DNA from: a virus
Length of the DNA stretch: 25,072 nt
Reading direction: 5' to 3' (one strand)
Virus record (IMG/VR): IMGVR_UViG_3300049491_000893
Span: 1 to 25,072 of that record
Of the stretch, positions 5,129 through 25,072 are shown piece by piece (positions within the stretch are counted from its first letter, which is position 1; each line of letters opens with the position of its first letter). The position numbers and the translations under genes were made by a program. Under the pieces are notes generated by a model. That model was given only the letters and a program-made list of their open reading frames with translations. It searched no databases and was not told the origin of the DNA.

Positions 5129-5368
5129 TTAGGAACCTTTCGGGCGCCCGACCGGTTTACGGCCCCTGGTCAACCAGGCGTCGAGGTCGGCTCGTTTGAA
5201 CCTCCACCGGCCCTTCGCGGCGTCGGACATCTTGTGCCCGACTAAACCGGACTTGTCATCAGCTGCGAGGCGGGTCAACCAGTAGGTGGAGATCCCGAGG
5301 TAGGCGGCGGCGTCGGATGACCTCAGCCACGGGTCGTCCGTGGTTGCTTTGTCATGTACTTTCAGCAC
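5129..5368 (-). CDS. xis: Excisionase, MerR/HTH_17-type
   Basis: A 79-residue protein with the excisionase-type winged HTH: WLRSSDAAAYLGISTYWLTR at about residues 14-33 and RWRFKRADLDAWL at about 54-66. It ends in a basic GRKPVGRPKGS tail with an AT-hook-like GRP core. It would bend DNA at the attachment region and turn the integrase toward excision. The GTG start at 5368 has GGAGGG six bases upstream. Unusually it is divergent from int rather than co-transcribed, sharing a 77-bp intergenic region with it, and convergent with the repressor cluster. Confidence 0.85.
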   Translation of the reverse strand: MLKVHDKATTDDPWLRSSDAAAYLGISTYWLTRLAADDKSGLVGHKMSDAAKGRWRFKRADLDAWLTRGRKPVGRPKGS

Positions 5369-5392
5369 AGCAAACCCTCCGCACTCGTTGTT

Positions 5393-5427
5393 ATTACTTG
5401 CGGAAACACTACATCATTACTTGCGGA
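5393..5427. repeat. Two 12-bp direct repeats ATTACTTGCGGA between xis and int
   Basis: Exact copies at 5393-5404 and 5416-5427, 23 bp apart start to start, about two helical turns. They fill the short region between the divergent xis and int starts, so a protein bound here could control both. Candidates are excisionase (autoregulation), integrase arm binding, or one of the phage repressors. No strong promoter hexamers are visible in this gap. Confidence 0.6.
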
Positions 5428-5445
5428 CCGGGAAAGGGTTGTCAG

Positions 5446-6576
5446 GTGGGTTGGCCGGAGGCGCACAGAGGTGAATGGCGAGGTGTCTACCGAGACGCCA
5501 ACGGGAAGCGCAGGAAGTCGACGACGACGTTCCGGTACAAAGCGCAAGCACGTGAGTGGGCAGAGTCCCAAGAACGCGCAGCCAAAACGGGCCGTGACCC
5601 GGACGCCGGACGTGTCCTGTTGAAAGTGTGGATCAGCCGGTGGGAAACCGGGAGAGTAGTCGAGCGCACCACCGAGGCCTCCGACGCCGGCCGCATTCGC
5701 GAGATTGTTGACCGGTTCGGTGACACCCCACTCGAGGACCTGTCACCGATGGCCATCTCGACGTGGTGCAAACAGCAATCGAAGGAGGGGCGGGGCCCGG
5801 CCACTGTCGCGAAGTACCACCGGCTCCTCTCACGCATTCTGAACGACGCCGTCCAGGAGCGGTTGATCACCGAGAACGTCGCGAAGTTCGTGAAGGTCTC
5901 GCTGCCGACCACGCACAAGGAGACGTATCTGACGCGGGGGCAGGTCGACGAGCTGATGCGACTGTCCGAGTCCCCTGTGGTGATTCGCACGTTGGCGTAC
6001 ACCGGGCGCAGGTGGGGGGAGTTCGCCGGCCTACACAAGGGCGACGTCGATTTTCTGCGCGGCGTGATGACGGTGTCCCAGACGGTCACGGAGGTGTCCG
6101 GGAAGTACATGATCAAGCCTTACCCAAAAGGTCGCCGCCCGATCCTGGTCCCGGTCCCTCAGCACGTGCTGGACGCCCTGGCCGGGCACATGGCGCAGAC
6201 TCCGCCGATCGTGTGCGGCCTGGAACGTGAGGACGGGAAGCCCCACAGGTGCTCGGGTCTGATCTTTCACACAGACCGCGGGAAACCCCTCTCACGCTGG
6301 GTGTGGCCCAGGACTCATCTTCTTCCACACCTGAGCGCTGCTGGGTGCCCACCAGAGACCACCACACACGACCTTCGGCACACCTACGCGTCGTGGCTGA
6401 TTCAGGACGGCGTGTCCCTACGTGTCGTGCAGAAGCTGCTCGGTCACAAGTCGATCGTGACGACGGAACGGTATTCCCACTTAGAGGCCGACACTGGGCT
6501 AGAGGCGGTCCGGAAAGCCCTGGACACCACATCTGACCCCACAGATGGACAACAAGAAGGACAGTCTTTCGCCTGA
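5446..6576 (+). CDS. int: Tyrosine-family site-specific integrase
   Basis: A 376-residue protein from GTG 5446, chosen because GGAAAGGG lies seven bases upstream and because upstream residues of the open frame are not integrase-like and would overlap xis. N-terminal arm-binding segment (GVYRDANGKRRKSTTTFRYK), a SAM-like core-binding domain (about 60-150), then the catalytic domain: R189 in TGRRWGE, K228 in the PYPKGRR beta-hairpin, H308 and R311 in HDLRH, H334 in LLGH, and nucleophile Y343 in ERYSH. All six catalytic positions are present, so it should be active. It catalyses recombination between attP, just downstream at 6601, and the host tRNA gene. Confidence 0.95.
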   Translation: MGWPEAHRGEWRGVYRDANGKRRKSTTTFRYKAQAREWAESQERAAKTGRDPDAGRVLLKVWISRWETGRVVERTTEASDAGRIREIVDRFGDTPLEDLSPMAISTWCKQQSKEGRGPATVAKYHRLLSRILNDAVQERLITENVAKFVKVSLPTTHKETYLTRGQVDELMRLSESPVVIRTLAYTGRRWGEFAGLHKGDVDFLRGVMTVSQTVTEVSGKYMIKPYPKGRRPILVPVPQHVLDALAGHMAQTPPIVCGLEREDGKPHRCSGLIFHTDRGKPLSRWVWPRTHLLPHLSAAGCPPETTTHDLRHTYASWLIQDGVSLRVVQKLLGHKSIVTTERYSHLEADTGLEAVRKALDTTSDPTDGQQEGQSFA

Positions 6577-12611: not shown

Positions 12612-15600
12612 TTAAGTGAGCGTGAAAGGTGCAAGCCACAGGCCGTACCAGTCTGTTGAGCCCGCTTCGTCGTAGTAGATGGGGGCCACGGCAAGTCCCC
12701 GATCGGTCTCGGCCGCGACAGTGACATTGCGGGGGTCGACTTCGATGTCGTCGTTGACTGCATCCCACGTCGCCGGGGCAGGTACAGCTGACACCGATGA
12801 GGTCGCGGACGTTCCGGTGGCGCAGGTGATGATCTCGAGCCCCGCCAAACCGCGAGGCGCTGAGGATTCGACGCGCACCCCGTAGGCGTTGATTAACCCT
12901 GCCGGTGTTTGCTGGAAGGTCCCACCCCCGCCCCTATAGGCGTGCCCGTTCTCGTCCAGGTAGGTCGAAGCACCAGACCCGACAGAACCGTCTGTGAGGT
13001 CGGTGGCGTGAGTGGACACCAGCAGCCCACTGACGGAGGCCTGCATGCCCTCCCCCAACTCGCTCAGCCCAACCTTCGGGTGCCCGGTCTCGTCGGCGAC
13101 GTCGATCGGGGTTCCGACTGTCAGTGTGGCGCCGTCGAACTCGATCGGGAACAGCCGGGTTTGGTACACCAAACTCGACGACGACGAGGACCCAACGATT
13201 TCGGCGAGGTACTCCCCCGTTGCGGTCTTGAACAGGTTCCTGGGGATGTTGTCCGCATAGGACGGTGTACCGGTGTGGGTGGGGCCGACGACGTCGATCG
13301 AGTCAATCAACGTGCCGGCGGCCCGGTCGATGGCGTAGGCCTTGACCTTGACCTTGCGGTGGCCAGCAGTGTCGTTCGTCGTGCGCCAACCGGCAATAAC
13401 GATCAGGTAGTCCCCATCAACCAGAGACGTTGAGAGCAGGTTGGAGTTCGTGAACTGCGCGGCCTGCGTGAACTCCCACAAAGACGTTTCGCCGGCGAAC
13501 AAACCCCAACCCGCAGCTGGTGCACCGGTCATGTCGAAGTGCTGCACAACCAGGCCACGATCAGCTGTAGAGGACCGCCTGGATGGTGAGGCGACGTAAA
13601 GGTTCCCGGCGCCGTCCCCGATGACACTCGAGGCTTGCCAGGAGTTGATGGTGTCGGCCATGCCGTTGAACGTTTGCTCGGTGCCCATGGTGGGGGTTCC
13701 GTCGATGGCGACGTCGACTGTGACGGCCCACCACGGGGTGTACGACACACCTGGGGAGACAGCCCTGGGGACAACAACTCCGTATTTCCCGATGTCGATT
13801 TGACCGCACCACACCACTGTCGGGTTCGGGACAAGTTCGTTGACGATGTCCCCTGATGTTCTCAACGGAGCGAACCAGTCGGCGCCCACGATTTCAACAC
13901 CGGTGTCGACATCGTCTGAGGTGTCTGGGGGGATGGGTAGCCGCATCGTGACCATTTTCGTGGGGACTGGGGAGGTGGACAGCATCCGGCCGGTGATTCC
14001 GGGGGCGGTTTGGGATTGAGACCTCGTCATGCGCTGCCCGAACACCGTCGGGGTTTTCCGCATCACCTCTCCCCACACTGGGTGCCACACCACAGGTCCT
14101 TGGCCGTCCCACGACCCACCCAACGCGAGGAGCCGGGTTGAGACTTGTTGCCCAGGTGGGCCGACTAGGCATTTGTCGGAGACAACGAAGTCGACGTAGG
14201 GGGTGGCGAATTGTTCGGCGAGGAATTCGCCTTGCAGTACCTCTTGGTGTTTGGCCAGTCCGTCCTCGAGTGAGGCGAGGACCAGGTTCCCGCCGTGAAC
14301 AAGTGAAGGGGCCGTCCCCAACTCGACCATCGTTTCTCGGCGCCCCAGTTCACCTGCAGCCACGGTTTCTGTGACGGTTGTCCACCCGCTGCGGGTGAAC
14401 AGGTTCGCGACGCACCCAAGGGCTGGGACGCCGCGGGCGACTAGCGATGTGTGTTGTTTGACCCACACGGGCGCGGTGCCGTCAGACAAGTTTTCCCCGC
14501 CGCGCCACACAGCTTGCAGGACTTTGTCGGGGGTGATTTTCACGGACAGTCCAAGGTCGGACAGGGCGTCGGCGACGTTGAAGATGGTGGTCCCGTACCT
14601 GTGGACCGTTTCTTGGGCGTCAACCCAGGTGGTGCCCTCCGAGTCCACTGTTCCGGTGAAGTCGACACTGAGTTCGAGGAGGGTGGAGTCTTGTGACTCG
14701 TCCGATGCCCTCGTTTGGGCCTCCGACAGCAGGGTGATCAAGATGGCGCCCGGGGTAGGGCCGGGGGCCCGAGCTCCTGCCCCAGCCAAATGGAGTCGGC
14801 AGGATTGGGTGTTGGCGTCGGTGACCATCAACCAGGACGCGTTGTTCCCGTCATCGTTCAGGGTGCACACAGCCAAGATGACAGGGTCGACGACGTCCCC
14901 CTCGCCACCTGTCTGCCTATGTGTGACGGTGTCAATCCCGACGGCGTAGGTGCCGGCGTTGTACGTCCGCTCCGCTGTGTGGACGTTCCTTTTCCCGAAT
15001 TCGACATCGGAGGTGGACAGGATCGCTTCGCCGGCGCACCACAACGTCGCGGACTCGTCGGATGAGAACCAGAACCGCACGACGGTGTCATCCGCGCTGA
15101 TGGTGATCCAGTCCCGGAACAGTTTCCGGTTCCCGGCCCCTCCTTGCGGGGTCAACCACCTCGCCCCAGCCGAAGCGGCTGCTTTCGGGAACTTCGGGGT
15201 TTGGTAGGTCCTCTTGCCGTCCTCAGTCCAGTAGTAGCGGGCTGCACGGCTGATGGGGACGGAGTTGTCCCAAATCGTTGGGTCATCGTCAGGGTCATAT
15301 GAGGACGATGGCCAGCCGAAGATTCGTTCTTGTCCGGCGTCTTGTGGCATGTCCGCACCGGACGCTTCCGGGTTCACCCCACCATCACTCAGCCACACTT
15401 CGGTTGCGTGTTTCGCGCCCGAAATGGTGATGTCCAAAGCGGCCGGGCCGTCCCTGTGAACCAGGGTCCGGGTGTGGTCGCCCCGCAACACGAACATCTC
15501 AATCTCCGTGAGTGCTTCCCCTTCGACGAGGGGCACAGCAACGGTCACGCAGCAGTCGTCGAGCAGGTGCGGGTCGTCAACTATTTGGGGTAGCCAAGTG

Positions 15601-15731
15601 GAGACGGTGAACCCGATCCCACCTGTGCCGCCGGCCTCAAAGGACCATTGGAGGTTGGTGACGGGCAGGATCGCGAGGCATTCGTTTTTGAATGTGTCCC
15701 ACACCCGGATTTGGGCGAAGCCGCAGATCAC
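12612..15731 (-). CDS. Large minor tail protein (tail tip)
   Basis: A 1039-residue structural protein. The N-terminal part (about 5-115: QIRVWDTFKNECLAILP, then WSFEAGGTGGIGF and EIEMFVLRGD) fits the tail-associated hub that follows Dit. A PA14-like beta-rich insertion is seen at about 190-270 (DWITISADDTVVRFWFSSDE, TYNAGTYAVGIDTV), a domain often used for carbohydrate contact. The C-terminal 350 residues have repeated short beta blocks that could form a beta-propeller or similar fold. Its GTG start overlaps the Dit-like gene (GTGA). It is likely the tail-tip protein that contacts the envelope and may help DNA entry. Confidence 0.8.
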   Translation of the reverse strand: MICGFAQIRVWDTFKNECLAILPVTNLQWSFEAGGTGGIGFTVSTWLPQIVDDPHLLDDCCVTVAVPLVEGEALTEIEMFVLRGDHTRTLVHRDGPAALDITISGAKHATEVWLSDGGVNPEASGADMPQDAGQERIFGWPSSSYDPDDDPTIWDNSVPISRAARYYWTEDGKRTYQTPKFPKAAASAGARWLTPQGGAGNRKLFRDWITISADDTVVRFWFSSDESATLWCAGEAILSTSDVEFGKRNVHTAERTYNAGTYAVGIDTVTHRQTGGEGDVVDPVILAVCTLNDDGNNASWLMVTDANTQSCRLHLAGAGARAPGPTPGAILITLLSEAQTRASDESQDSTLLELSVDFTGTVDSEGTTWVDAQETVHRYGTTIFNVADALSDLGLSVKITPDKVLQAVWRGGENLSDGTAPVWVKQHTSLVARGVPALGCVANLFTRSGWTTVTETVAAGELGRRETMVELGTAPSLVHGGNLVLASLEDGLAKHQEVLQGEFLAEQFATPYVDFVVSDKCLVGPPGQQVSTRLLALGGSWDGQGPVVWHPVWGEVMRKTPTVFGQRMTRSQSQTAPGITGRMLSTSPVPTKMVTMRLPIPPDTSDDVDTGVEIVGADWFAPLRTSGDIVNELVPNPTVVWCGQIDIGKYGVVVPRAVSPGVSYTPWWAVTVDVAIDGTPTMGTEQTFNGMADTINSWQASSVIGDGAGNLYVASPSRRSSTADRGLVVQHFDMTGAPAAGWGLFAGETSLWEFTQAAQFTNSNLLSTSLVDGDYLIVIAGWRTTNDTAGHRKVKVKAYAIDRAAGTLIDSIDVVGPTHTGTPSYADNIPRNLFKTATGEYLAEIVGSSSSSSLVYQTRLFPIEFDGATLTVGTPIDVADETGHPKVGLSELGEGMQASVSGLLVSTHATDLTDGSVGSGASTYLDENGHAYRGGGGTFQQTPAGLINAYGVRVESSAPRGLAGLEIITCATGTSATSSVSAVPAPATWDAVNDDIEVDPRNVTVAAETDRGLAVAPIYYDEAGSTDWYGLWLAPFTLT

Positions 15732-20918: not shown

Positions 20919-21375
20919 CGGTAGGTCCTCTCCGTGCTCGGCGTCCGTCGCCTTGGCCGCGTAGCGCAGCTGCTGTGGCTTTGGCGACTGCGGTGTCTAG
21001 GGCTGTGGCGAACTGGGGGGCGGTCTCGTCCAACGCCGGTTGGAAGTGCGGTAGCGGGGCCTGGGCGTAGTTCCGCCCGAGCGAGTCCGCGCCGACGAAG
21101 CCGAACTCCAACCTTCGGCCTTGAACGGAGTTCGTTCCAACGACGGCCGTGTAGGCCCCACGTTCGCGGGTCATCTGTAGCCCGATGGACCTGCGGTAGT
21201 CACCGGTCACGACGCGGGGCCCTGGACGGCCTGAGGCCCTAGCCCGAACCCTGGTTCGCAGGAGTGAGCCGTATTGCTGTGTGGTGCGGTTCATGGCCCG
21301 CTCCACCCCCGGGGAAACGTCCTTGAGTAACTTGGCGACCTCGGCGGCGTTGCTTGTGATCGCGATGCGGGTCAC
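20911..21375 (-). CDS. HK97 gp10-like tail completion / neck protein
   Basis: A 154-residue protein: helix (AAEVAKLLKDVSPGVERAMN), basic segment (SLLRTRVRARASGRPGPRVV), TGDYRRSI, AVVGTNSVQGRRLEFGFVG, and YAQAPLPHFQPALDET with a C-terminal Ala-rich helix. The TGDYRRSI and GxNSxxxxxLEFG pattern is typical of HK97 gp10-like neck proteins that join head and tail. The C-terminus is very basic (GDGRRARRGPTGG). The start overlaps the upstream gene by four bases. Confidence 0.8.
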   Translation of the reverse strand: MTRIAITSNAAEVAKLLKDVSPGVERAMNRTTQQYGSLLRTRVRARASGRPGPRVVTGDYRRSIGLQMTRERGAYTAVVGTNSVQGRRLEFGFVGADSLGRNYAQAPLPHFQPALDETAPQFATALDTAVAKATAAALRGQGDGRRARRGPTGG

Positions 21376-21794
21376 GGGGACACCTGCCCTGGTGTGAACC
21401 CGGTCAATATCAACGTTTGGATTGCGTTAGCCGACCCACCAGTGACGGATAGGACCGAGAACCGGCGGCCTTGGAGTCTCTCGTCGAGACACACGCCGAC
21501 CTCGACGAGGTCCCCCGCCTGGGCGGTGATGACGGTGGGGAGTATGACGCACTTGTACGTCTCCTGGGAGACCTGCACACCAGGTGCCCGATCTGTCTGT
21601 CGGGCGTTAGTTGCATCAACGATGACCGCGGGTTCGTCCTGGGCGACGATCGTTGAGGTGCGGCTGACTTCCAACGTCTCAGGGTCCACCGTGGTGGACC
21701 CGTCAGGGCGCCGTATGGTCACGAACGTCCCCGAGCTCGTGATGGCGTCAGAGGCCAACTGTCGGCCGATACCGAACAGCGACTCCAAGTTCAC
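21372..21794 (-). CDS. Head closure protein, DUF6093-like
   Basis: A 140-residue protein beginning MNLESLFGIGRQLASDAITS and containing TFVTIRRPDGSTTVDPETLE, a QDEPAVIVDA strand, and AGDLVEVGVCLDERLQGRRF. This matches by eye the DUF6093 family encoded between adaptor and gp10-like genes in actinophages, which probably acts as head-closure or stopper protein in the connector. Its ATG overlaps the upstream gene's stop. Confidence 0.75.
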   Translation of the reverse strand: MNLESLFGIGRQLASDAITSSGTFVTIRRPDGSTTVDPETLEVSRTSTIVAQDEPAVIVDATNARQTDRAPGVQVSQETYKCVILPTVITAQAGDLVEVGVCLDERLQGRRFSVLSVTGGSANAIQTLILTGFTPGQVSP

Positions 21795-22030
21795 CGCAAC
21801 TCACCAGCCAACTCGGCCAACGTGTCCAGGATGGCCTGCCCCACAGGAACCCGCCCAGATGTCTTATTCAGGGCATCTTTCGTGAGCTGCTCCGCATCAA
21901 GGGAACACAGCCACTCCTGAACCGCTGAGGCGAAGTCAAACCCTAGTTCGGGTTCGGTGACGGTTTGGTGCCACGCCAAATGCGTGTCCTCATCAGCAAC
22001 AAGGGATGAGCACACCCGGCACGTCTGCAT
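21791..22030 (-). CDS. Small zinc-finger protein of the head-tail module
   Basis: A 79-residue protein. The N-terminal CRVCSSLVADEDTHLAWHQ has C4-x2-C7 and H17-x3-H21, a compact C2H2-like zinc site. The remainder is helical (FDFASAVQEWLCSLDAEQLT, GQAILDTLAELAGELR). Small zinc-finger proteins with a CxxC...HxxWH pattern are recurrent in actinophage head-tail regions, without established function. It overlaps the head closure gene by four bases. Confidence 0.7.
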   Translation of the reverse strand: MQTCRVCSSLVADEDTHLAWHQTVTEPELGFDFASAVQEWLCSLDAEQLTKDALNKTSGRVPVGQAILDTLAELAGELR

Positions 22031-22047: not shown

Positions 22048-22239
22048 TCACTGTCCTGCGGGACGGTAGACAGGCCCTCCGATGAGCGCCATGCGCCGGT
22101 TGTACTCCACGACAGACTCCGCCGATCCGAACTGGGCGGCGAAAAGCAGTTGCTCAACGGACATCGAGGCGACGTCCAAATGCTTCGTCTGCTCAATTGC
22201 GTCCCGGACCGAATCCGGAACCTCGCCGGAAATCATCAT
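22048..22239 (-). CDS. Small helical protein downstream of the MuF fusion
   Basis: A 63-residue protein from ATG 22239, which overlaps the MuF gene's stop (ATGA) and has GGTGGA as SD. Sequence: SGEVPDSVRDAIEQTKHLDV, SMSVEQLLFAAQFGSAESVV, RRMALIGGPVYRPAGQ; all helical, no Cys. Tight coupling to a gene with a toxin-like domain would fit an immunity protein, but a small structural protein is equally possible. I recognise no family. Confidence 0.55.
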   Translation of the reverse strand: MMISGEVPDSVRDAIEQTKHLDVASMSVEQLLFAAQFGSAESVVEYNRRMALIGGPVYRPAGQ

Positions 22240-23840
22240 GGTTTCCACCCGTAAAACTCGTGATAGACCTGCCCCAACGGGTCGGTCTTGTCGAGCTGCC
22301 ACTTAGCGTACGCCTCGGCGTAGCCTTCCGCCACGGACGATTGGCCGTAGGCGGTGTTGGCGTCCTTCGTGATCAGCCAGAACAGTTCGTCCTGTGTGTT
22401 GGTGAGCAACGTGACAGGGTTACGGGTGTCTGAACGGAGTCGGTCCACGATGTGCCCCATCTCGTGGATGTAACTGTAAAAGTCGATGTCCGCTTGGCTC
22501 TGGGACAGTTCTCCGCGGGCCAGGCGCGGGTTGACGTAGATCGCCAACGGAAGTTCAGGCGACGGGTACACGAACGCCATCACCACACCCTTGGGTTGTG
22601 GCGTGAAGTGTGGGCTGTCTTGAACTGACATGCCTATGGCGGCGCCGACCAGGTCGTCGGGGAGGGTCTCCAACGCCTGATCGAACCCTTGAAGGACTCT
22701 GGCGGTTTGTTCTTCGGTGAGGTCGACTTCGATTTCGACGCTGCGGTTTCCGTTGGAGTACTTCTTGATCGCTGTTCCCGTCGCGGGGTTCCCGAGCAGG
22801 TCCACCCCGAACTTTGTGTCAAGTGCCGGGTCGGGCGTCCATTTCCCAGGCGTGTAGGTCTTCGGTGCCGCCTTCGCGGCCATCTTCTTGGCGTGCTTGA
22901 TTGCGGCAGGCGACTGCGCCTTACTTCCCCGGTCGCTGATGATGCCGTTGCGGGCTAGCCGTCGTCGTTCCACAGTTGCGGCGTGACGCTTCTCCGCGGA
23001 TGACTGGTCGGCTCGTTGGGCTGCGGTGGTGGAGGGTTGCGCCTTTTTCGCTTGGGCTTTGGTGGTGATGTCGGGGCGCGGCGATGAGGACCTTCTGCAC
23101 CGCGGGTGCGACAAGGGGTAGGCGCGGGCTTCTTCGACGGTGACGATTTTGCCGTTTGCCGGGTTGGGGTCTTGGTGTGACGTCCACCCACACGAAGCGC
23201 CGTCAAAGATTTCCATGTATTTGATGCCGAACGCGTCGGCCTGGTCGAACCCGCCGATCTGGTGCACCTCCGCGGTGCGGGTCCTGATCAGCATGTCGGT
23301 GTAGTCGGCCAACGTGCGGGTAGAGCCGTCTTTGTAGGTGACTGCTGTGATGCCCTTCGACGCGAGGTCTTGGGCTAGTTCTTTCGCGGCCTGGGCGGGT
23401 GTGGTGCCCCTGATCAACCGGTCGGCGATGCGGTCCTTCGCCAAATACCGGATTTGGTCCTTCGCAGTACTCCTCACATGAGTCGTAGCGCTCAACAGGT
23501 CTTCGAAGGTGTCTTGGACAACCAAGTTCAGGGCGTCAACGGCGACTTGGGTGAACACCGGGCTTGTTCCTGCGGCGGCGGTTGCTGCCGTGGTGGCACC
23601 CAACGTGTACGCCTCCGGGAGGCCCCGCTGCGCCCATCTGAGGGCTAACTGGTCCGCCGCGGCCATGAGTTCGTCAACGGTGGCCTGCAACTCCCGCAGC
23701 CGGGAGAGGCGGGCTGTGCGGGGCATCGTGGGCCACTCCGCGATGATGCGGGCCTGTTCGGCGTCTAACCGGTCCTGGGCGGCCTGGAACGTTCGCCGGA
23801 TCGCCTGTGAGGTGGCCTCCAAACCTGGCACATCAGGCAC
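22236..23840 (-). CDS. MuF-like minor head protein fused to an HExxH metallopeptidase-like domain
   Basis: A 534-residue protein, GTG start with AGGTAA seven bases upstream. The first about 260 residues are a MuF-like head morphogenesis domain: helical N-terminus, LIRTRTAEVHQIGGFDQADA (184-203), an EIFDGASCGWTSHQDPNPAN segment and LSHPRCRR (243-250) with the usual HPxCR ending. A Lys/Ala-rich linker (260-330) follows. Residues 335-534 form a separate domain with IHEMGH (458-463), the HExxH zinc-peptidase motif, and VAEGYAEAY (503-511), whose E505 or E509 could be the third ligand, a gluzincin-type layout. This is the design of phage MuF polymorphic toxins: a capsid-borne protein that carries an effector into the cell. 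The position after, not before, the capsid gene is unusual. Confidence 0.8.
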   Translation of the reverse strand: MPDVPGLEATSQAIRRTFQAAQDRLDAEQARIIAEWPTMPRTARLSRLRELQATVDELMAAADQLALRWAQRGLPEAYTLGATTAATAAAGTSPVFTQVAVDALNLVVQDTFEDLLSATTHVRSTAKDQIRYLAKDRIADRLIRGTTPAQAAKELAQDLASKGITAVTYKDGSTRTLADYTDMLIRTRTAEVHQIGGFDQADAFGIKYMEIFDGASCGWTSHQDPNPANGKIVTVEEARAYPLSHPRCRRSSSPRPDITTKAQAKKAQPSTTAAQRADQSSAEKRHAATVERRRLARNGIISDRGSKAQSPAAIKHAKKMAAKAAPKTYTPGKWTPDPALDTKFGVDLLGNPATGTAIKKYSNGNRSVEIEVDLTEEQTARVLQGFDQALETLPDDLVGAAIGMSVQDSPHFTPQPKGVVMAFVYPSPELPLAIYVNPRLARGELSQSQADIDFYSYIHEMGHIVDRLRSDTRNPVTLLTNTQDELFWLITKDANTAYGQSSVAEGYAEAYAKWQLDKTDPLGQVYHEFYGWKP

Positions 23841-23844
23841 AGGG

Positions 23845-24174
23845 TTACCTGATTGTTGGTGTGCGGGTCAGGCGGGTCACCGTCACACCACCGGAACTAC
23901 CCGGGTCCTCCAGGCCCAACGAGGCGGCGCGGGCTTCCAGGCGGCGGATGTGGGCGTCCAGGAGTTCAATTTCGCCGTTCGTCACAGACAGGACACCAGT
24001 CAACGTGAAGGACTTCGGCTTCCCCAACAGATCCCCGCGCCTACGACGGAGTACTCGCAACGAAACCAGAACGGTCGCACCCAGCTCGTCGAAGAACGCA
24101 TCCACAGTTGCGTCGTCCGGTTCCGAACCGACCTCGTCACGAATCTCCGCCAGTTCTGTGTCTGTCATCGCCAT
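23845..24174 (-). CDS. Head-to-tail adaptor
   Basis: A 109-residue helical protein: MAMTDTELAEIRDEVGSEPD, TVLVSLRVLRRRRGDLL, then SFTLTGVLSVTNGEIELLDA and HIRRLEARAASLGL. This is the pattern of actinophage head-tail adaptor proteins encoded shortly after the major capsid gene; it would bind the portal and receive the closure protein. ATG 24174 or 24168 are both possible starts; neither has a close SD, and two hairpins lie immediately upstream with an AGGAGGTGA inside one of them. Confidence 0.7.
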   Translation of the reverse strand: MAMTDTELAEIRDEVGSEPDDATVDAFFDELGATVLVSLRVLRRRRGDLLGKPKSFTLTGVLSVTNGEIELLDAHIRRLEARAASLGLEDPGSSGGVTVTRLTRTPTIR

Positions 24175-24488: not shown

Positions 24489-25072
24489 TTACTTGACGTC
24501 CGACACGAACAGCGAGTTGATCTCGCCGGCGACGGGCATCGCGACCGCGGTGGCCTTCGACCAGCGGGTGACCGGGTCGGTGGCCTTGTACACCGCGGCG
24601 AAGATGCCGGGGGCGTCTTGGCGGGTGAAGTCCACGGCGTTTGACCCGGCCAACTCCAACGCATCCGCGGTGGCCCCAAACTGGGTTTCGCCCAGGTTGT
24701 TACCTCCGAGGATGAAGTAGTCCTCGCCGATGAACCTCGTTGACACCGCACCGAGGTTGGCTCGGTTGTCGTTGACACTGATCGGTGGCAGGCCGTAGCC
24801 GGCGCGGACACTGTTCAGTTGGTCGAGGTTCAAATCCGGGCGGTCGGTCGCCGCACCGAAGTACGACGTCTTGTACTGCGTGTTCGCCTGCATCAAAGCC
24901 AGAACTGCGGAGCTGGTGACGGCGAAGGACACGTTCCCGCCGTCAGTGCGGATGAGGTCCGCCCAGGCCCGTTCGTTCGTCAACGGCACAGCGGTGACGG
25001 TGTTGGACCACAGAATTGCTGGTGCCGCGGTGTGCGGGGCAGGCAAACCGTAGTCGGCCTCCAACGTGAGGC
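24489..25072 (-). CDS. Major capsid protein (5' part cut by window edge)
   Basis: The minus-strand frame is open to the window edge; about 194 C-terminal residues are seen. Motifs: GLPAPHTAAPAILWSNTVTA, AWADLIRTDGGNVSFAVTSS, AVLALMQANTQYKT, LNLDQLNSVRAGYGLPPISV, and LGETQFGATADALELAG, the C-terminal pattern of HK97-fold capsid proteins of actinophages, in which a test-epitope-like helix and the strand before LGET are conserved. The true start lies beyond the edge; a TTG at 25064 is internal. It forms the icosahedral shell. Confidence 0.85.
   Translation of the reverse strand, partial: LTLEADYGLPAPHTAAPAILWSNTVTAVPLTNERAWADLIRTDGGNVSFAVTSSAVLALMQANTQYKTSYFGAATDRPDLNLDQLNSVRAGYGLPPISVNDNRANLGAVSTRFIGEDYFILGGNNLGETQFGATADALELAGSNAVDFTRQDAPGIFAAVYKATDPVTRWSKATAVAMPVAGEINSLFVSDVK

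What the first reader, a model, noticed from the sequence alone, without database searches (positions are those of the whole stretch)
22236..23840. Virion MuF protein carrying a metallopeptidase-like effector domain
The 534-aa protein joins a MuF head domain to a C-terminal domain with IHEMGH (458-463) and a downstream EGYAE (505-509), the ligand layout of zinc peptidases. Phage MuF polymorphic toxins are an established idea (a capsid-attached protein bearing a variable C-terminal toxin). Here the domain would be delivered with the DNA. Target and function (anti-host, anti-competitor or host takeover) are inference. The gene also lies after the capsid and adaptor genes rather than next to the portal, as if inserted as a module.
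Basis: partly seen in the sequence, partly recalled or inferred. Interest (0 to 1): 0.75.

Follow-up and report, generated by a model that had tools for sequence, protein, structure and literature searches.

The report
Phage head protein carrying a protease
A phage with an integrase makes a head protein with a zinc-protease-like end domain that moves between phages together with a small partner gene, which fits a protein injected with the phage DNA and a partner that keeps it in check.

Summary
The 534-aa protein at 22236-23840 (-) has an N-terminal minor-head domain (PF06152, above cut-off) and a 205-aa C-terminal domain with HEMGH (459-463), Tyr498, Glu505 and Glu509, the metal-site pattern of lethal-factor/PPEP-type gluzincins. 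Motif statistics and two moderate-confidence models support a gluzincin-like domain; no curated model names it. MuF-plus-metallopeptidase proteins are published (20% of 191 MuF toxins, Jamet 2017), so this is a new member of a known kind. The gene's place behind capsid and adaptor is shared with relatives lacking the peptidase, so it is no sign of insertion. The C-terminal domain is the mobile part: short relatives end near residue 328, and in relative L198 peptidase plus a small ORF form a block missing from two similar phages. The new element is that small ORF (here 22048-22239, overlapping the muf stop). A profile of ten partners built without the window's copy finds it as best other hit among 31,329 ORFs (E 9.5e-5). 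It is a candidate immunity or inhibitor family; the window copy has no Pfam, PHROG or NCBIfam match. Delivery, protease activity, target and immunity are inferred.

The parts
23046..23840 (-). MuF-type minor head domain, residues 1-265
   Evidence: PF06152 residues 48-236, 7.8e-10; phrog_37388 6.5e-32, phrog_4611 4.8e-19; 97.0% identical in L002
22854..23045 (-). linker, residues 266-329, shared with short relatives that end here
   Evidence: L055, L116 and L140 end at the position of about residue 328
22236..22853 (-). C-terminal gluzincin-like peptidase domain, residues 330-534, with stop codon
   Evidence: models; fold comparisons
22452..22466 (-). HEMGH, residues 459-463: two predicted zinc ligands and the general base
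   Evidence: H, E, G and H invariant in A6 and A8
22347..22349 (-). Tyr498, aligned with a Tyr of the lethal-factor chains
   Evidence: invariant in A6 and A8; PDB alignment
22314..22328 (-). EGYAE, residues 505-509: E505 predicted third ligand, E509 second-shell Glu
   Evidence: E505, A508 and E509 invariant in A6 and A8
22048..22239 (-). small partner ORF, 63 aa, ATG overlapping the muf stop (ATGA); candidate immunity or inhibitor protein
23845..24174 (-). upstream adaptor-like gene (109 aa), same place in relatives without the peptidase
24489..25064 (-). major head protein, C-terminal part, at the end of the record
   Evidence: phrog_29, 2.8e-31, profile positions 174-358 of 439
21791..22030 (-). 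next gene (79 aa) after the partner; beyond L002 no clear homologue in the loci compared
21372..21794 (-). head-tail gene (140 aa), conserved downstream anchor
5317..6576 (+). integrase: phage probably temperate
   Evidence: phrog_1, 6e-66

Best explanation
The protein is a MuF polymorphic effector of a temperate phage. The N-terminal domain is built into the head (inferred from family membership). The C-terminal 205 residues are a zinc-dependent gluzincin-like peptidase with a lethal-factor/PPEP-type metal site (shown as sequence pattern and, with moderate confidence, as predicted fold; activity not shown), probably carried in the head and released into the next cell with the DNA (inferred). 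The peptidase and a small ORF overlapping its stop codon form one exchangeable cassette (shown in L198 against two phages without it; in the window by position and profile). The most likely role of the small protein is to bind and silence the peptidase in the producing cell until assembly, like an immunity protein (inferred). The target is most likely a bacterial cytosolic protein cleaved early in infection (inferred, weakly).
For: Head domain. Metal-site pattern kept across very different phages. Purifying selection on the catalytic part, dN/dS 0.015/0.38. Lethal-factor chains are the best PDB sequence match, though weak (E 0.077 and 0.059). Cassette: L198 against L057 and L088 aligns at 84% before and 82-86% after a block of about 985 nt that holds peptidase and partner; the bases after the partner stop in L198 closely match those after the muf stop in L057 and L088. 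Polymorphism: L137 (HEFGH domain) and L077 (PI3/4-kinase match) share flanking DNA at 69-75% but differ in the C-terminus. Partner: with a profile of ten partners that leaves the window out, the window copy is the best other hit (E 9.5e-5), and the next hit outside its own copies and L002 (L194, E 0.07) is also an ORF at a peptidase stop; leave-one-out, 9 of 11 members rank first among non-training ORFs of 31,329. Integrase. [quoted passage not shown]
Against: No Pfam ATLF or other peptidase model names the window domain. The models have mean pLDDT 64 and 67; M1 aminopeptidases and M30 lugdulysin tie with lethal factor in the structural alignment, and the second model's Foldseek match is weaker (E 0.016). 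The zinc geometry was not measured. A single-sequence search with the window partner found no relative beyond L002, and a narrow profile gave only third place of 5,001 against its shuffles. The profile members of the last scan were picked by eye for likeness from 21 ORFs that overlap peptidase stops, which flatters leave-one-out for those members, though not for the window copy. 17 of 37 peptidase ORFs have no downstream ORF scoring above the controls, and six of the 20 that do score only 3.8-6.6 bits, so the partner is not universal. Two of 11 members did not rank first. The partner sits in the late head operon, so it would not be expected in a quiet lysogen; that fits self-protection during assembly better than lysogen immunity. 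[quoted passage not shown] No activity, delivery or toxicity was tested.
Confidence: 0.62

Rival explanations
1. The domain is a head-assembly protease: it trims capsid or MuF proteins during maturation, and the small ORF is its cofactor. Nothing is delivered.
For: It is part of a head protein, and some MuF-like PHROGs bear the label head maturation protease. Zincin domains in polyvalent phage proteins are proposed to process such proteins (PMC5512222, passages).
Against: Relatives with a short MuF (L057, L088, L140, L055, L116) do without it, so it is not needed for assembly in this group. The same peptidase type sits on several unrelated carriers.
Confidence: 0.15
2. The domain is an injected effector with an early, mild role for the phage (cutting a host defence or regulatory protein, or tipping lysis-lysogeny) rather than a weapon. 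The small ORF is a chaperone or packaging aid.
For: Jamet et al. propose such a role for MuF proteases (PMC5576092, discussion section read). The phage has an integrase. The partner lies in the late operon.
Against: No target evidence. A dedicated partner gained or lost together with the domain fits immunity as well or better.
Confidence: 0.3
3. The small ORF is an ordinary head-operon gene that happens to follow muf, unrelated to the peptidase.
For: Phage genes overlap often; 25.5% of short muf genes are also followed by a small ORF. 17 of 37 peptidase ORFs show no partner above controls.
Against: In 131 MuF-only controls no downstream ORF exceeds 2.5 bits, and in L057, L088, L140 and L116 no such ORF is seen behind muf. 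It follows the peptidase onto carriers without a MuF match, L188, L206 and L207.
Confidence: 0.1

Closest known systems
MuF polymorphic toxins of temperate phages (Jamet et al. 2017, PMC5576092)
   Same: PF06152 head domain, C-terminal extension, metallopeptidase type (20% of their 191), small ORF downstream, phage with an integrase
   Different: muf follows capsid and adaptor, not portal; domain is in no curated model searched; a partner family recurs with this domain on several carriers; toxicity unknown. Their supplementary tables were not open to me, so this peptidase type may be among theirs
Lethal-factor/PPEP-type gluzincins (Pfam ATLF; ALF-MPTase toxin domains of Zhang et al. 2012, PMC3482391)
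   Same: HExxH, Tyr, ligand Glu and second Glu in the same order and similar spacing; best PDB sequence and Foldseek matches
   Different: Not detected by the ATLF model; about 15% identity in structural alignments; phage carrier. Zhang et al. list this type for PVC and T2SS delivery, not MuF (passages)
Zincin domains of polyvalent phage proteins (Iyer et al. 2017, PMC5512222)
   Same: HExxH zincin domains in phage proteins, thought to process polyproteins or act as effectors (passages)
   Different: Those are multidomain proteins with 12 zincin clades of their own; membership of this domain not tested
MuF Apk2 toxins and Bxa with cognate immunity proteins (PMC12226406, PMC11699363; abstracts)
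   Same: Prophage-encoded C-terminal toxin with neutralising partner proteins
   Different: Different enzymes (pyrophosphokinase, ADP-ribosyltransferase); immunity there shown by experiment

Membership tests
MuF polymorphic toxin | MuF head domain at the N-terminus | tested here: met
   PF06152 38.6 bits over cut-off 26.3
MuF polymorphic toxin | C-terminal extension that varies between related MuF proteins | tested here: met
   13 of 119 stretches (a capped scan) have 200 or more residues from the motif on, two of them because of inteins seen by eye; L137 and L077 differ in C-terminus within alike flanks
MuF polymorphic toxin | Small ORF directly downstream | tested here: met
   63-aa ORF, ATGA overlap; family by leave-one-out
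MuF polymorphic toxin | Temperate phage | tested here: met
   integrase phrog_1, 6e-66; lysogeny itself not shown
MuF polymorphic toxin | C-terminal domain is toxic to bacteria | not testable with these tools
   needs expression
Pfam ATLF (lethal-factor/PPEP type) | HExxH plus downstream ligand Glu | tested here: met
   H459, E460, H463, E505
Pfam ATLF (lethal-factor/PPEP type) | Tyr seven residues before the ligand Glu and second Glu four after | tested here: met
   Y498, E509; alignment with PDB chains; that these are catalytic features of the family is recalled
Pfam ATLF (lethal-factor/PPEP type) | Match to the curated model | tested here: not met
   no ATLF row at E up to 1 for the protein or up to 10 for the domain
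Pfam ATLF (lethal-factor/PPEP type) | Same fold | tested here: inconclusive
   lethal-factor best Z 8.0 and 8.9 in the two models, tied with M1 and M30 peptidases; models pLDDT 64 and 67
Polyvalent-protein zincins | Membership of one of the 12 described clades | not tested
   their alignments were not at hand

The most novel reading that the evidence does not exclude
Phages share one exchangeable protease-plus-partner cassette, a gluzincin of lethal-factor/PPEP type and a dedicated inhibitor of about 47-71 aa from an undescribed family. It has been loaded onto several different carriers (MuF types, other head proteins, and proteins of unknown type), so that virions deliver a protease whose partner protects the maker.
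Probability: 0.4. Interest if true: 0.68.

Novelty: new member of a known kind. Interest (0 to 1): 0.52.

Why it matters
MuF metallopeptidases are a fifth of published MuF toxins. The passages and abstracts I read name no tested MuF peptidase and no partner for one; the tested MuF toxins named there are pyrophosphokinases and an ADP-ribosyltransferase. A partner family that follows the peptidase from carrier to carrier gives a direct, cheap test (peptidase with and without partner) of whether virion-borne proteases are toxins with immunity, and a handle for finding the target.

Tried and rejected
Insertion of the whole gene: rejected, the order is shared with relatives lacking the peptidase. 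Head-maturation protease: judged unlikely, see rivals. Named family for the domain: Pfam, PHROGs and NCBIfam gave none for the window domain. Named phage or plasmid with the C-terminal domain: no credible match in the phage collection with the window domain (three records at E 4-8) and none with L206's; in plasmids the full protein matched only in its MuF part, and L198's domain had no match. Near-identical phage DNA: no match. Host genomes: domain profile A2 matched 0 of 396 genomes of one order (the tool warns that an empty answer without a positive control shows nothing); A8 matched 3 of 394 of the class weakly, places L208-L210, of which only L210 showed the full motif in my scan and none a partner; L208 and L209 were not pursued. 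The search of that order with the whole MuF protein gave no answer. Small-ORF link: a single-sequence search with the window copy found only L002's; pairwise with L198's, 8 of 2000 shuffles did as well; the three- and four-member profiles did not reach significance for it (third of 5,001 against its own shuffles); the ten-member profile did. The ten include six that I picked by eye from 21 ORFs overlapping peptidase stops and trimmed at starts of my choice, so scores of members are circular and leave-one-out flatters those six; the window copy and L194 were not picked that way. A weak likeness of one partner (L216) to DUF6887 (E 0.0011, below cut-off) led nowhere; the library held no paper with the term. 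Structure could not settle which gluzincin family. A paper search for PPEP with M34 found nothing.

Full report
What is there. The window is a whole virus record of 25,072 bases. The ORF at 22236-23840 (-) encodes 534 aa. Residues 48-236 match PF06152 Phage_min_cap2 above its cut-off, and the N-terminal part matches several head-protein PHROGs. Residues 330-534 match no Pfam, PHROG or NCBIfam peptidase model. The phage carries an integrase at 5317-6576 (+), so it is probably temperate.

Is the metal site real? The one near relative found, L002 (90% identical overall), keeps the ligands. Identity falls in the linker and the first part of the domain (82.8% and 73.6%) and rises to 96.4% over residues 451-534, with dN 0.015 and dS 0.38. 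A scan of viral contigs with only the downstream motif found 24 stretches. Of the 23 newly read, 22 have HExxH within 90 aa upstream, against 1497 of 200,000 random ORF positions; several of the 23 are near-duplicates. A last scan returned 24 loci, of which 20 were new, 20 of 20 with HExxH, also with near-duplicates; one of its two search patterns contained HE. In the PDB the recurring match is the lethal-factor catalytic stretch, weak by itself (E 0.077 and 0.059); there HExxH, Tyr498, Glu505 and Glu509 fall on equivalent residues. Two AlphaFold2 models (pLDDT 64 and 67) place HEMGH in one helix and EGYAE in a later one, behind several strands. The structural alignment ties lethal factor (best Z 8.0 and 8.9) with M1 aminopeptidases and M30 lugdulysin. 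I therefore call it a gluzincin-like domain of lethal-factor/PPEP type in its metal-site pattern, not a member of the ATLF family, whose model it does not match.

The gene order is ordinary. L057 has capsid, adaptor, muf and the 140-aa head-tail gene in the same order with a short MuF, and L139, a Streptomyces linear plasmid, has capsid, adaptor and muf; L140 in Sanguibacter inulinus and L055 share the adaptor-muf part. The nearest MuF relative in the bacterial genome scan is L140 (39% over residues 7-327), so the host is probably an actinobacterium (inference).

The C-terminal domain is the module. L055, L116 and L140 share the linker and end near residue 328. Others carry a PI3/4-kinase match (L077), a DUF3626 match (L130), a peptidase-like domain with an ATLF score below cut-off (L060) or a HEFGH domain without a family match (L137); L120 and L121 look RelA-like and L068 ART-like to my eye only. 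L137 and L077 have alike flanks (69-75%) but different C-termini.

The cassette. L198 has the same MuF type and a related peptidase (score 119 against a shuffle mean of 31, 0 of 500). Its DNA aligns with L057 and L088 at 84% up to position 699-705 and at 82-86% again from 1688-1690. The block between holds the peptidase and a 47-aa ORF that starts inside the muf stop (ATGA) and ends at 1688. The bases after that ORF's stop closely match those after the muf stop in L057 and L088. So peptidase and small ORF were gained or lost together there.

The partner family. The window has a 63-aa ORF at the same place, also with an ATGA overlap. Small ORFs of the same kind follow the peptidase in L188, L206 and L207, whose carriers match no PHROG, and in several loci of the last scan. 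The link of the window copy to them was not visible at first: alone it finds only L002's, and narrow profiles miss it. A profile of ten members without the window finds it at E 9.5e-5, best after the training members; the next hit after L002's copy is L194's ORF at its own peptidase stop (E 0.07). Leave-one-out over 11 members puts 9 first among non-training ORFs of 31,329 in 233 sources; L226 comes third and L228 fourth. Six of the members were picked by eye, which flatters them but not the window. Against 131 MuF-only controls (maximum 2.5 bits), 20 of 37 peptidase ORFs have a higher-scoring downstream ORF; 11 of these are profile members, L002 and L230 are near copies of members, and of the rest only L194 (14.9) is clearly above, the other six scoring 3.8-6.6. 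17 of 37 show none, so the link is strong for part of the group only.

Carriers. Of 10 proteins from the first motif scan that I submitted (of 23 loci), L193, L197, L203 and L191 match PF04233 MuF above cut-off, L186 just below, and L198 matches PF06152 just below. Of 10 submitted later (nine from the last scan and L012), 7 match head-and-packaging PHROGs. L206, L207 and L221 share a YHWKHG.IPL start, and L187, L195, L227, L231 and L232 share HDQS.HG-like motifs (read by eye).

How it most likely works. Shown: architecture, conserved metal site, exchange as a block with a partner gene in a relative, integrase. Inferred: incorporation in the head through the MuF domain, release into the infected cell, proteolysis of a bacterial protein, silencing by the partner in the producing cell. 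The partner lies in the late operon, so protection during assembly is likelier than immunity of lysogens.

What is known. Jamet et al. 2017 (two sections read and passages) define MuF toxins, give 20% metallopeptidases among 191, 89.4% with a small downstream ORF against 25.5% of 952 short ones, and suggest delivery with DNA; I could not open their tables. Zhang et al. 2012 (passages) describe ALF-type peptidase toxin domains, listed there for PVC and T2SS delivery. Iyer et al. 2017 (passages) describe zincins in polyvalent phage proteins. Cognate immunity has been shown for Apk2 and Bxa (abstracts). So the architecture is known; in the listings and the passages read I did not meet this partner family.

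Noticed in passing
L095, L036, L014 (MuF ORFs): By eye, inteins or HINT-like insertions interrupt the MuF gene at the conserved HPN-C motif in three different phages, as if this site is a repeated target.
   Followed up: no
L227, L229, L231, L232 (also L187, L195): Repeats of a GxHDQSxHGxWA-like motif; in L227 and L229 copies precede two tandem HEWGH domains, in L232 a HEWGH and a HEIAH domain, in L231 another domain. It may be a packaging or cleavage tag for virion cargo.
   Followed up: no
L219, downstream ORF from about 4312: A partner-like start is fused to a longer protein with NPNRDPKGRF and, by eye, an ART-like end, as if the partner leads into a second effector gene.
   Followed up: no
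L007-L009, L011, L013, L015-L017, L019: A family of glycine-rich proteins with HE(L/M)GH domains, apparently from isolate genomes and not fused to MuF in the frames read; the carrier function is unclear.
   Followed up: no
L218 1-6304: A 2101-aa open frame (cut at its start) that looks portal-like at its start and holds two HExxH sites.
   Followed up: no
L137 and L077: Related phages with alike flanks carry a HEFGH domain and a kinase-like domain respectively at the end of MuF.
   Followed up: partly
L208, L209: Weak matches of the peptidase profile inside open frames of 2919 and 3298 codons in genomes of the same class as Sanguibacter.
   Followed up: no
window 12612-15731 (-): 1039-aa ORF without a Pfam match and with only a marginal PHROG match, perhaps a tail protein by its position behind the tape measure.
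   Followed up: no
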